From: Clitopilus passeckerianus
Taxonomy: Eukaryota; Basidiomycota; Agaricomycetes; Agaricales; Entolomataceae
Direction: 5' to 3'
DNA: 64,000 bases
Assembly: GCA_944990035.1 (NCBI GenBank)
Contig: CALYLX010000136.1
Span: forward strand, 1,256,661 to 1,320,660
Shown: one piece after another, positions 55,807-59,958 of the stretch
Numbering within the stretch: position 1 is the first letter of the stretch
Layout: every line of letters starts with the position of its first letter
Translations under genes and position numbers: made by a program
The notes under the pieces: generated by a model
The model's database searches: none
What the model saw: the letters and a program-made list of their open reading frames with translations, nothing else
What the model was told of the DNA's origin: nothing

Positions 55807-56829
55807 ATGTTCAGGCAGATTCTCAATGCTCTTGTAAATCTTATCTGTGGTTCCCCAGAGCCACAAAAACCACCTCAGCAGCATTATCCACCCCCTCAGC
55901 ATCACTACCCGCCCCAGCATCAACAACCGGTACCCCATCAGAAACCCAGTAGCCCCCCTCACCGTCCCCCCGGCAAGAAGTATGAGGTAAGTCCATTCTT
56001 ACTATTCTGAGGATCGTATACTCATATTTTCACCACCAGGATGATAACCAGATCAACCAACATAATGAATGGTATATCAACACACGTGCCCAAGCTAACC
56101 AAGAAGGAGATGCAATGTCCAGATGCTTCGACCAAAGTCACAGGGCATACGAAAGTGGAGACAAGGCCGGTGTAAAGAACCTCTCCGAGCAAGGCAAAGA
56201 GCACCAACGTAAGATGCAATCTCTCAACAAGCAAGCAGCCGACTGGATCTTCATTGGTGCCTTTTCAAATACACCTTCTGTATCGTTAGTTGATCTTAAC
56301 AATGAACCATTTCCTCTTCTTCTTCAGAGAACAATAAGGTCTTTATACCTTTGAATTACTGGCGTTCCGACTGCGATTATAACGTGTGACCCCAGGATAG
56401 CCGAGACGGAGAAGTTGATCTTCATGGTCTCTATGTCAAGGAAGCCATTGAGCGCACTGACGTAGCAATTGAAGAAGCAAAGAGGTCTGGCAGATCCAAA
56501 GTCCATCTCATTGTTGGTATGTGTACGAACGCCCAATTAATTTGGGCCCGGTCTTACGAATCCTGTTAGGCAAAGGTCTTCATTCCAAAGGCGGTGTGGC
56601 CAAGTTGAAGCCAGCCATTGAGGACCTAATGAGGAAGTAAGTTGGCTCAATGCTACCTTGAGGAACCTTCTAAGGAATATAAAACAGGCATAGCCTCCAG
56701 GCTGAGCTTGACCCTCACAACGCAGGTGTCCTCGTTGTGCAGATCAATGCAAGTCGCGACAGAGGCGTTGGTGCAGACGAGATTGCACGCCGTCTTGACA
56801 GACAGGACGAAGGCTGTATCATCATGTAA
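55807..56829 (+). CDS. DUF1771/Smr-domain protein
   Basis: Start MFRQILNALVNLICGSPEPQ at 55807 leads into a Pro/Gln/His-rich linker (QQHYPPPQHHYPPQHQQPVP). Exon 2 encodes the DUF1771 helices with NEWYINTRAQANQEGDAMSR and SHRAYESGDKAGVKNLSEQG. The C-terminal Smr domain, found in MutS2-like and RNA/DNA endonuclease proteins, reads GEVDLHGLYVKEAIERTDVA with the LDLHG-type motif and VHLIVGKGLHSKGGVAKLKP (GxGxHS motif). The final exon adds HNAGVLVVQINA and ends in a Met after DEGCII. Fungal homologues (Cue2 group and others) act in mRNA surveillance, but single-domain proteins like this are uncharacterised. Stop 56827-56829. Confidence 0.88.
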
Positions 56830-57005
56830 TTCTTAGAGCCAGTGCAGTTAGAAGAATGACTACCTCAGTAAAATAATAATTGGGTAAATATATGCTAGAG
56901 TGTATGATACTACATAGCCTCGTTGAAACTTTTGGGTTTCAAGAGGAAAAGCAAGGTGAAAAAACTAGGCAAGTAAAAAGAGTTTCGATAAGCTCCAGCG
57001 TCTCC

Positions 57006-58093
57006 TCAAATCTCGAGTCCAACAAGAACATAGGCGGGGTCGACTTGATAAACAGGCTTTGTGACCACAATTCCGCCAACATACATGAGAGAATGAAGGA
57101 GCGAGCTTAATTTTGGAGAGGAACGCTCCAACACAATCAAAAGCGCCGAACAACCAAGCTGCTCATCTGCCAAATCCAGTAGGGCAACAATGCTACAAAA
57201 ATTTTCGTTAGGTGCAAGGAACGCGGATGGTGATAAGGATGATAGGAAAGCGTGGGCCTTGACGCACCTTTCTCGAAGACTGACGGCTTCAGCACTTTTA
57301 CCATCTACATAGAATGTCTTGGGTTGATTAGGGAGTTCCAATACAACACCGTCGAATGCAGCACCCATGTTCGGAGTAGAAATGGATACCTTCTGTGCAT
57401 AAGGCAAAGCTTGAAGTCCATCGCGTGGGAAGAGGTTCATCAAGAACTCGAGCGAAGCTTGCTCCGCGTCTTTTCGTGCTTTGATAGGGGCGTTGGTTGG
57501 TGGTGTCTGGACATCAATGCTGCCACAATCGCTTCCATCGCTTCCATCGTCTGGAGAGAGTGGGGGTGTCGAAGCGTTGGAGCCAGTCCTCGTGGTAACC
57601 ACGCGCGGGATAGGTACAGGTCGGCCGACGTTGTTGAACTTGTTGATTTGCTGAGAGGTTGCGGAAGGGTGGAGTTTAGAAGAAAAATAAGAAGAAGGTG
57701 AGGTAGAGAGAACAGGCGCCGGACTGTCTGTCACCCAGTCCGACGACCCCCGGTCAGGAGGGCATTTCACTTTGGGGGTGTCAAAAGCGCCACTACACGA
57801 ACGCATCCAGTCAGTTCGACGCGCTTGACAAGAAAAATAGATAAGCCCTTACCTCGGGTCCCCCAGAGAACGTAGTAGAGTAGTAGTATTTATCGTTCGT
57901 GCCCTGAAGGTGGCACACAGCGATCACACTGGCATCGGTGTCGAAAGGAAGAGAAGCCCCATCTCCAACGGCTTGACGGCCGTTGCTGTGAATATTTATG
58001 AGATACATTATCGTAGTGAAGTTTAGCAGATACGTACGTGGGGCAAAGACTAGATGTCCGATTTATAATATTTGTCATTGAATTCAGCGACAT
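57006..58093 (-). CDS. OAZ1: ornithine decarboxylase antizyme, two frames joined by +1 frameshift
   Basis: Antizyme binds ornithine decarboxylase and targets it to the proteasome, limiting polyamines. Frame 1 starts MSLNSMTNIINRTSSLCPT at 58093 (exon 58038-58093) and continues in exon 57853-57985 to FSGGPE. The next exon (from 57792) begins TGG CGC TTT TGA, so frame 1 ends after 66 codons at 57781-57783. The antizyme domain is in the +1 frame of the same exon: GAFDTPKVK, then a Ser/Pro region, STPNMGAAFDGVVLELPN, and after an intron (57193-57267) SIVALLDLADEQLGC, LLIVLERSSPKLSSLLHSLM and YVGGIVVTKPVYQVDPAYVL. No alternative acceptor fixes the frame. Reading T-TTT-GA with one base skipped gives WRF-DTPKVK. 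Stop near 57006. Confidence 0.9.
57781..57786 (-). promoter_or_regulatory. programmed +1 frameshift site TTT-TGA of antizyme
   Basis: On the minus strand the zero frame reads CGC TTT TGA C. The TTTT run allows the P-site tRNA to re-pair one base forward, after which GAC ACC CCC AAA continues the antizyme frame. The in-frame stop next to the slip codon is the conserved feature of antizyme shift sites; UCC-UGA is the commonest form, and other codons before UGA are known in invertebrates and fungi. Elevated polyamines raise shifting in characterised cases. Confidence 0.85.
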
Positions 58094-58586
58094 GTTCTGC
58101 CAATTTGATAGCTTGTAACTGGGTGAAGATAAGGGGTTGATTGGGCTGCCGAAGAAAAACTTTATTAGTACGTGGCCACAATGTTCCGGACTTTAGAACG
58201 TACGTTTGATACGGCTGCACGTTGGCTAGATGGTGAGTCGATGTAAAGAGCGGAGCAATGAACAAAGCGTCCTAGTCTCAGCTGACTCCTCCAATCCAAA
58301 CACCCGACAACAACAGGCTCGGCAATCGCCGGTTGCGCACGTTTGCTGTCTGATAGCAAGAATTTGAGTGTAAGGAGGCTCAACACCGTTGAAGACAGCG
58401 ACCTCAAGACCTGTGAGTAACCCCTTCATGCCTCTGAATGCTGCAAACGGGCGTATAAACGTCTGTTGCACCGTATTACGGACACATCTGCTGAACTTCA
58501 CCGTTTTATCGGATGGATTCGAATCCCACTATCTGGATGACCTTGACTGACCATTCGATCTTCTAGATTTCGCCAAATACTAAAAC
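58094..58586. other. divergent promoter region, antizyme and RPS2
   Basis: About 490 bp. Open minus-strand frames overlap the antizyme start in another phase (58050-58265) and run up to 58501; the longest lack an ATG or any motif. They may be part of the antizyme 5' leader. A T-loop-like TTCGAAT at 58509 is not part of a tRNA. Confidence 0.45.
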
Positions 58587-59468
58587 ATGGCTGACGCTGC
58601 ACGAGGACGTGGTGGATTTGGACGTGGACGCGGAGACCGTGGACGTGGACGCAGGGGACCTCGCCGTGGAGGACGCAAGGATGAGGAGAAGGAATGGTGA
58701 GTTCGGCGTCCAGGACTCCCAAGGATCCAGAAGTCAATTTTGTTACAGGGTTCCCGTCACCAAGCTCGGCCGTCTCGTAAAGGACGGAAAGATCAAGTCC
58801 ATGGAGGAAATCTACCTCTTCTCACTCCCCGTCAAGGAGTACCAAATCATCGACTTCTTCCTCCCCAAGCTCAAGGATGAAGTCATGAAGATCATGCCCG
58901 TTCAGAAGCAAACTCGTGCCGGTCAACGTACCCGTTTCAAGGCTTTCGTTGCTATCGGTGACGGTGAAGGCCACGTCGGTCTCGGCGTCAAGTGCGCTAA
59001 GGAAGTCGCAACTGCCATCCGAGGTGCTATCATTCTTGCCAAGCTCTCCGTCATCCCCGTCAGGAGAGGTTACTGGGGTGCTGCTCTTGGTGAGCCTCAC
59101 ACTGTACCCTCAAAGGTCAGCGGAAAGGTCGGCTCCGTCATGTGCCGCCTCATCCCTGCCCCCCGTGGCACTGGTATCGTTGCTGCCCCCGCATCGAAAC
59201 GTCTGCTACAGCTCGCTGGTGTTGAGGATGTCTACACACAATCAAAAGGTTCAACGGCAACTATGGGTAACTTCTTGAAGGCCACCTTTGCTGCTGTACG
59301 TGGGCATACTTCATCCGTTTTCCGCACTGCTGATATTCCCTTGTGTAGATCACCAAAACATACGCATTCCTCACCCCCGATCTCTGGCGCGAAATCCCTG
59401 TGTCCAAGTTCCCCTACGACGAGCACAGTGCCCACCTGCAGCTTGCAGCAGGCAAGAAGGCATACTGA
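58587..59468 (+). CDS. RPS2: 40S ribosomal protein S2 (uS5)
   Basis: Small-subunit protein at the mRNA entry and decoding region. Start [20 protein letters not shown] at 58587 gives the RGG-rich eukaryotic N-terminus, ending KDEEKEW before the first intron. The S5 domain reads [60 protein letters not shown] and the ring-forming [21 protein letters not shown]-terminal exon: [20 protein letters not shown] ending LAAGKKAY. About 260 residues. The gene is strongly C-ending in codon use, as expected for highly expressed genes. A second intron (about 59295-59348) lies near the 3' end. Convergent with the small frame at 59482. Confidence 0.97.
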
Positions 59469-59481
59469 GCGTTTATGGATG

Positions 59482-59958
59482 TTATTCGGCACATTTCTTT
59501 CCTTTGATCATGTATATCTTCAGAATCATAACCACGCTTTGAATCTGCACTGCATCTCGGCCTGTTGAACGTTTGACATTTTCGATTGATAGATGATGGC
59601 TTTGATTGAACAGTTCCGTTGATTCATCCAGCTGACGTTTGCATCTATCTTGAATGGGCTCAAGCCATATGCTCCTGTCTTCGAGGAAGCGGAGTATGAC
59701 ATGAGCTGAATGTTGAGAGTCGGCCTGGTGATTTGCTTGTTGGGACACATTTGCTCCAGAGGCCCTTGGCACTTGACCACTGGTTTCGACCAGACCTTCA
59801 TCATCTTCTGTCCTTTTTTCGCTGCTCTGGCCAGCGTTCAAAGCGTTTTCACTTGTGAGTAATGGCTTGTATGCGCGAACCTTGCTCCTGATTTTGCCCG
59901 CCTTTAGCATTCTTGGCTGGACTGGATCGTTCTGCATCTTTGTATTCTCATATTTCAC
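59482..59958 (-). CDS. hypothetical protein, single exon
   Basis: An uninterrupted 158-codon frame starting [20 protein letters not shown] at 59958 with a basic N-terminus ([16 protein letters not shown]), a polar middle rich in Gln, Ser and Asp, and a helical C-terminal part ([20 protein letters not shown]). No family recognised. It ends only 14 bp from the RPS2 stop and so overlaps the RPS2 3' UTR on the opposite strand. Length and start are plausible for a real gene, but base composition alone cannot exclude a chance frame. Confidence 0.4.

What the first reader, a model, noticed from the sequence alone, without database searches (positions are those of the whole stretch)
57006..58093. Antizyme gene with a TTT-TGA +1 frameshift site a few codons after a splice junction
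Frame 1 (66 codons) ends in TGA at 57781-57783; the antizyme domain continues in the +1 frame of the same exon. The shift codon TTT lies in a TTTT run, which makes forward slippage of the P-site tRNA possible. The third exon starts only 12 bases before the shift, so the sequence context 5' of the site depends on splicing. Standard annotation pipelines would split or mis-join this gene.
Basis: partly seen in the sequence, partly recalled or inferred. Interest (0 to 1): 0.85.

Follow-up and report, generated by a model that had tools for sequence, protein, structure and literature searches.

The report
Mushroom antizyme gene with built-in frameshift
This is the antizyme gene of a mushroom-forming fungus, whose protein should be made only when ribosomes skip one base at TTT-TGA; that frameshift is already well described in such fungi, and the one fresh detail is that two introns cut through the signals thought to drive it.

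Summary
On the minus strand, four exons (58093-58038, 57985-57853, 57792-57268, 57192-57006) encode a 66-codon ORF1 ending TTT-TGA (TGA 57783-57781) and a +1-frame ORF2 carrying the antizyme domain PF02100. Exon 3 starts 9 bases before the TGA (6 before TTT), not 12. This is the programmed +1 frameshift of Agaricomycete antizymes, studied by Yordanova et al. 2015 (PMC4505036), who report UUU-UGA in all 34 Agaricomycete sequences and one Dacrymycete. The published elements are recognisable here: nascent peptide, module A, 14-bp 5' stem, AAAU plus two adjacent 3' stem-loops 19 nt after the shift site. So it is a new member of a known kind. Not found in the papers I could search: intron 1 falls inside the 5' strand of the 14-bp stem, and intron 2 after the first base of module A. 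Public protein models suggest that intron 2 is conserved in several Agaricomycete orders: of 104 retrieved proteins with the peptide, 69 run on into V, 55 of those followed by S/R/C/G, as a GTRNGT donor predicts. Only 3 of the 104 continue [GE]WRF. Splice-gated frameshifting is possible but untested.

The parts
58038..58093 (-). Exon 1, start of ORF1 (ATG 58093-58091; second in-frame ATG at codon 6); its last 7 nt GCCCCAC are part of the 5' strand of the 14-bp stem
57986..58037 (-). Intron 1, 52 nt, GTACGT...CACAG; interrupts the 5' strand of the 14-bp stem
57853..57985 (-). Exon 2: rest of the 5' stem, Ala-Val dipeptide, nascent-peptide signal, first base of module A
57956..58044 (-). 5' stem-loop (14 bp, 3-nt bulge), CDS 50-86, assembled across intron 1
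   Evidence: -24.9 kcal/mol, z -5.63, 0 of 200 shuffles as stable (published stems: at least 30 kcal/mol)
57856..57888 (-). Nascent-peptide signal, codons -15 to -5, YYYSTTFSGGP
   Evidence: positions as in PMC4505036
57793..57852 (-). Intron 2, 60 nt, GTAAGG...GTGTAG; lies between base 1 and base 2 of module A; if retained, frame 0 stops after 13 further codons
57787..57792 (-). Module A bases 2-7, TGGCGC (base 1 is the G at 57853)
57781..57786 (-). Shift site TTT (57786-57784) and ORF1 stop TGA (57783-57781)
57718..57767 (-). AAAT (57767-57764) and two directly adjacent stem-loops, starting 19 nt after TTTT
   Evidence: -25.9 kcal/mol, z -1.77, 13 of 200 shuffles as stable; in a longer stretch stem 1 is replaced by another pairing
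57268..57792 (-). Exon 3, shift site and most of ORF2
57193..57267 (-). Intron 3, 75 nt, in frame and without stop
   Evidence: PF02100 scores 34.7 bits (profile 45-91) on the unspliced ORF2 frame and 44.6 bits (12-91) on the joined protein
57006..57192 (-). Exon 4, end of ORF2 with stop TGA 57008-57006

Best explanation
This is the ornithine decarboxylase antizyme gene of an Agaricomycete, probably an agaric. Ribosomes read ORF1 to UUU with UGA in the A site. Slow termination, the nascent YYYSTTFSGGP peptide in the exit tunnel, module A and the downstream stem-loops let a fraction of ribosomes move one base forward, more when polyamines are high, and continue into ORF2. The product inhibits ornithine decarboxylase and sends it to the proteasome, closing a feedback loop. 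Shown here: the two-frame gene, the cassette elements in the predicted spliced mRNA, their conservation. Inferred from the published Coprinopsis cinerea work and from antizymes in general: frameshifting, polyamine response, ODC targeting. Neither shown nor tested: that tRNA-Phe re-pairs in UUUU.
For: Gene model and PF02100. 508 relatives; the top one, Hypsizygus marmoreus P0001, is 68% identical over 98%, and the unnamed P0002 76% over 80%. UUU-UGA in all 34 Agaricomycetes plus one Dacrymycete, and reporter tests of the elements (PMC4505036). Peptide exactly YYYSTTFSGGP in 67 of 70 relatives that a regular expression could parse; the expression itself allowed only three variable positions. 14-bp stem with 0 of 200 shuffles as stable. 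19-nt spacing to the 3' structure as published. Ganoderma lucidum P0028 reads GGPGWRFDLPTAKCPP; PMC9604110 (passages) describes a cloned G. lucidum cDNA with a 66-aa short chain and 333-aa product, and I infer that P0028 (332 aa) is that product. P0121 and P0124 end at GGP[GE]WRF. ODC-type domain PF02784 in the genome, 2 matches. Exon 1 + intron 1 + exon 2: 0 of 241 columns with a substitution among four copies versus 59 of 1430 elsewhere, Fisher p 8.6e-5.
Against: No RNA or protein data from this organism. The 3' structure is only modestly more stable than shuffles (z -1.77, 13 of 200; z -1.35, 21 of 200), and with the upstream C-run included the best fold replaces stem 1 by another pairing. 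Its second loop folds as 9 nt, where the paper describes 7. The 5' stem computes to -24.9 kcal/mol, below the published 'at least 30'. Codon -2 is CGC; the paper text I saw tested CGA and AGA (both reduced) and UGG (unchanged), not CGC. No PDB antizyme matched: 0 at E 0.01 with the profile; the single sequence gave 14 entries up to E 10, best 3.2e-6, named Bagel, Cake, cell surface protein, netrin receptor DCC and a quinone protein, over residues 46-75 or 96-143. Two of four copies are not intact as assembled: L003 has single-base gaps in exon 2 and after the TGA and further indels in ORF2, L001 a two-base gap in ORF2. Fisher's test ignores that the copies are related, and gaps were not counted.
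Confidence: 0.95

Rival explanations
1. No frameshift: an alternative splice around intron 2 joins ORF1 to ORF2 in frame, as many public gene models assume.
For: 18 GT-AG combinations (introns of 30-220 nt, intron 1 removed first) would fuse the frames here, e.g. donor 57829 with the normal acceptor, or donor 57871. Ten of the 120 listed models leave the peptide early, nine of them as YYYSTT|G[AGV]F[DN], as donor 57871 would do here; 59 of 120 run into the V of the intron.
Against: Donor 57829 leaves a 37-nt intron with GTCAAG; donor 57871 is GTTCTC and removes 5 of 11 residues of the conserved peptide; in the range searched the predicted donor 57852 fuses only with introns ending at 57651 or 57639, which delete the 3' structure. 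The inserted peptides in the public models differ from species to species (39 listed). Spliced forms ending in WRF, or compatible with it, exist. Published reporters show frameshifting (PMC4505036).
Confidence: 0.03
2. The frame break is an assembly error or the gene is a decayed copy.
For: Small indels in two of the four assembled copies.
Against: TTTTGAC is in four of four copies, the window copy is open in both frames, and relatives share the arrangement.
Confidence: 0.01
3. Splicing gates the frameshift: because introns 1 and 2 divide the stem and module A, only fully spliced mRNA carries a working cassette, and the cell regulates this.
For: Positions of both introns. Intron 2 position apparently shared by many relatives; intron 1 read-through visible in 6 of 120 models and in P0123 and P0128. 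Retained intron 2 stops frame 0 after 13 codons here.
Against: Any intron inside a coding region must be removed; no sign of regulation was seen or could be tested. Unspliced RNA can still pair both halves of the 5' stem (-24.6 kcal/mol). Intron positions may be conserved by inertia.
Confidence: 0.08

Closest known systems
Agaricomycete antizyme mRNA frameshift cassette (Coprinopsis cinerea; Yordanova et al. 2015, PMC4505036)
   Same: UUU-UGA, conserved peptide at codons -15 to -5, module A, 14-bp 5' stem, AAAU and two adjacent 3' stem-loops 19 nt downstream
   Different: Codon -4 is GAG (Glu) rather than GGG, a variant the paper notes in at least two mushrooms and found similar to the parent construct; codon -2 is CGC rather than CGU; the 5' stem ends 109 nt before TTT, the paper gives 106
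Ganoderma lucidum GlAZ (PMC9604110, passages; P0028 by inference)
   Same: 66-aa short chain, join GGPGWRF-D, PF02100
   Different: Gly at codon -4; longer product (332-333 aa against 299)
Animal and yeast antizymes (UCC-UGA recalled; GCG_UGA seen)
   Same: +1 frameshift at the ORF1 stop, antizyme domain
   Different: Other shift codon and other stimulators

Membership tests
ODC antizyme (PF02100) | Antizyme domain above the curated cut-off | tested here: met
   44.6 bits against 24.2; the same family gave no match in 14 control genomes
ODC antizyme (PF02100) | Two overlapping frames, ORF2 in +1 at the ORF1 stop | tested here: met
   by sequence
ODC antizyme (PF02100) | The frameshift takes place in vivo | not testable with these tools
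   needs a reporter or mass spectrometry
ODC antizyme (PF02100) | Binds and destabilises ornithine decarboxylase | not testable with these tools
   ODC-type domain present in the genome
Agaricomycete antizyme cassette | Shift site UUU-UGA | tested here: met
   57786-57781
Agaricomycete antizyme cassette | Conserved peptide at codons -15 to -5 | tested here: met
   YYYSTTFSGGP, same in 67 of 70 parsed relatives; the paper's own letters are in a figure that is not held
Agaricomycete antizyme cassette | Module A, 7 nt next to the shift site | tested here: met
   GTGGCGC; C. cinerea G-UGG-CGU pieced together from the text
Agaricomycete antizyme cassette | 14-bp stem in ORF1 | tested here: met
   energy -24.9, less stable than the published 'at least 30 kcal/mol'
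Agaricomycete antizyme cassette | AAAU abutting two adjacent stem-loops 19 nt after the shift site | tested here: met
   spacing and AAAU exact, fold only z -1.77
Agaricomycete antizyme cassette | Loop 2 of seven nucleotides, six of them invariant | tested here: inconclusive
   the computed fold has a 9-nt loop; published letters are in a figure
Agaricomycete antizyme cassette | Polyamine-responsive frameshifting | not testable with these tools
   needs a reporter

The most novel reading that the evidence does not exclude
In Agaricomycetes two conserved introns are placed so that the complete frameshift cassette exists only in spliced mRNA: intron 1 divides the 5' stem and intron 2 divides module A, parting it from the peptide signal. 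Intron 2 retention would switch off, or in species with a stop-free intron of suitable length bypass, polyamine control of antizyme, and the cell uses this as a second layer of regulation.
Probability: 0.08. Interest if true: 0.6.

Novelty: new member of a known kind. Interest (0 to 1): 0.28.

Why it matters
It adds one more species to a well-studied regulatory frameshift and shows how public gene models fare at the shift site: of 104 retrieved proteins holding the peptide, 3 continue [GE]WRF, and one of those (P0028, Ganoderma) goes on into ORF2 (the sample is 120 listed of 508 found, plus 10). The intron placement gives a concrete, testable question about splicing and recoding.

Tried and rejected
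Rfam gave no match to an antizyme element in 56500-58500; the two weak hits are below gathering score, outside the gene and on the other strand. The PDB profile search found nothing, and the single-sequence hits are not antizymes. Viral contigs: 61 pattern matches, none a relative. A first look for the shift site in the four loci read one strand only and found it in L002 alone; one search read both strands and found it in all four. Ivanov and Atkins 2007 (NAR), which may discuss introns, is not held, so the statement that I did not find the intron placement in print rests on the listings, on 0 occurrences of 'intron' in the main text of PMC4505036, and on passages of PMC9604110, which mentions a GT-AG intron in one Ganoderma gene model without saying where. 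No relatives' genomic DNA was read; intron conservation is inferred from protein models. The four copies were first taken for paralogues: ribosomal S5 DNA next door also has 4 matches, a stretch about 27 kb away 3, ODC 2, so haplotypes and overlapping contig ends look likelier; not settled.

Full report
What is there. The minus strand holds a four-exon gene (58093-58038, 57985-57853, 57792-57268, 57192-57006) with GT-AG introns of 52, 60 and 75 nt. Frame 0 runs 66 codons to TGA 57783-57781. One base on, the frame is open for 233 codons to the TGA at 57008-57006. The joined 299-aa product matches PF02100 (ODC_AZ) at 44.6 bits; the unspliced ORF2 frame matches at 34.7 bits over a shorter part of the profile, which supports removing intron 3 although that intron is in frame and stop-free.

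Copies. The assembly (64.8 Mb, 160 contigs) holds four matches to the family, one of them the window. Four of four carry TTTTGAC. Exon 1, intron 1 and exon 2 have substitutions in 0 of 241 columns among the four; the other segments aligned have 59 of 1430 (Fisher p 8.6e-5; the copies are related and gaps were not counted, so this is a guide only). L003, at the very start of its contig, has single-base gaps in exon 2 and after the TGA and further indels in ORF2, and L001 a two-base gap in ORF2. Ribosomal S5 DNA next door gives 4 matches, a stretch about 27 kb away 3, and ODC 2, so haplotypes and overlapping contig ends are more likely than a gene family; this was not settled.

Known cassette. 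Of Yordanova et al. 2015 (PMC4505036) I saw the abstract, the first of two parts of the introduction, the whole results section, and passages of the rest. All 34 Agaricomycete sequences and one Dacrymycete use UUU-UGA. The stimulators are an 11-residue nascent peptide at codons -15 to -5, module A of seven bases, and AAAU followed by two adjacent stem-loops starting 19 nt after the shift site; a conserved 14-bp stem lies 106 nt upstream. Here these read YYYSTTFSGGP; GTGGCGC; AAAT after exactly 19 nt with two stems without a gap (-25.9 kcal/mol, z -1.77, 13 of 200 shuffles as stable); and GCCCCACCAACGGC pairing within GCCGTTGGAGATGGGGC (-24.9 kcal/mol, z -5.63, 0 of 200), ending 109 nt before TTT. 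Codon -4 is GAG, a natural variant that the paper notes and found similar to the parent. Points that fit less well: the 5' stem is less stable than the published 'at least 30 kcal/mol', loop 2 folds as 9 rather than 7 nt, stem 1 gives way to another pairing when the upstream C-run is included in the fold, and codon -2 is CGC, which the text I saw did not test.

Relatives. Of 508 proteins found, 120 were listed and used, plus 10 found with ORF1 alone. Of these 130, 104 hold the peptide: 69 continue [GE]V, 3 continue [GE]WRF, 32 continue otherwise. In 55 of the 69 the residue after V is S, R, C or G, as a GTRNGT donor would be translated (binomial p 5e-19 against 17 of 61 codons; relatedness ignored). 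So these models have apparently read into an intron that sits where intron 2 sits here. The 69 include species of Agaricales, Polyporales, Boletales, Russulales, Corticiales and Jaapiales (names; one species per order looked up). Six of 120 models, and P0123 and P0128, show a read-through at the place of intron 1.

Evidence for the spliced form. P0121 and P0124 end at GGPGWRF and GGPEWRF. Eleven of the 120 were classed as reading the +1 frame over the join; 10 of them are compatible with YYYSTTFSGGP[GE]WRF in frame 0 at all 15 codons, and P0115 at 8; among all 2685 windows of the same proteins 10 reach 15, one reaches 8 and the rest 4 or fewer, so I take the top eleven to be those same sites. 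Nine of the ten lie on contigs of 962 to 1859 bases, which I infer to be assembled transcripts; P0040 is a genome annotation. Ganoderma P0028 has GGPGWRFDLP and is probably the cloned cDNA of PMC9604110 (passages).

Intron placement. Intron 1 splits GCCCCAC from CAACGGC, inside the 5' strand of the 14-bp stem; intron 2 splits G from TGGCGC, inside module A. The word intron does not occur in the main text of PMC4505036; the listings showed nothing on it in titles and abstracts; PMC9604110 mentions a GT-AG intron in one Ganoderma gene model; the 2007 comparative paper is not held. Whether the placement matters is open. Unspliced RNA can still pair the two halves of the stem across the intron, and a retained intron 2 ends frame 0 after 13 codons. 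In some species the public model reads through a length that looks like the whole intron in frame with ORF2 (17 or 18 residues in P0010, P0011, P0042, P0073 and P0082), so retention there could bypass the shift; beyond donor-like first residues the inserts differ, which speaks against selection for it.

Mechanism. Re-pairing of tRNA-Phe from UUU to the overlapping UUU is possible in TTTT and fits the fixed shift codon, but was not tested. The review PMC5009743 (passages) says that a big majority of frameshifting involves re-pairing, and also discusses the Agaricomycete nascent peptide. Verdict: real, well conserved, already understood in outline; the intron placement is the only part that I could not find described.

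Noticed in passing
window 58567-59568 (+): Divergent neighbour encodes a ribosomal protein S5 family member (PF00333 and PF03719); its DNA lies beside the antizyme gene in all four copies.
   Followed up: partly
window 56390-56569 (+): Exon with an Smr domain (PF01713, 25.8 bits, just over the cut-off 25.7), tail to tail with the antizyme gene.
   Followed up: no
L003 and L001: Indels in assembled copies: single-base gaps in exon 2 and after the TGA plus others in ORF2 (L003), two bases in ORF2 (L001); assembly error or decay not settled.
   Followed up: partly
window 58093-57853: ORF1 exons 1-2 with intron 1 show no substitution among four copies (0 of 241 columns, intron 1 itself 0 of 52) while flanks and ORF2 vary.
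   Followed up: partly
window 57267-57193: Intron 3 is 75 nt, in frame and stop-free, so retention would add 25 residues inside the antizyme domain; it begins about 513 nt after the ORF1 stop, where it could mark unshifted mRNA for nonsense-mediated decay (inference).
   Followed up: no
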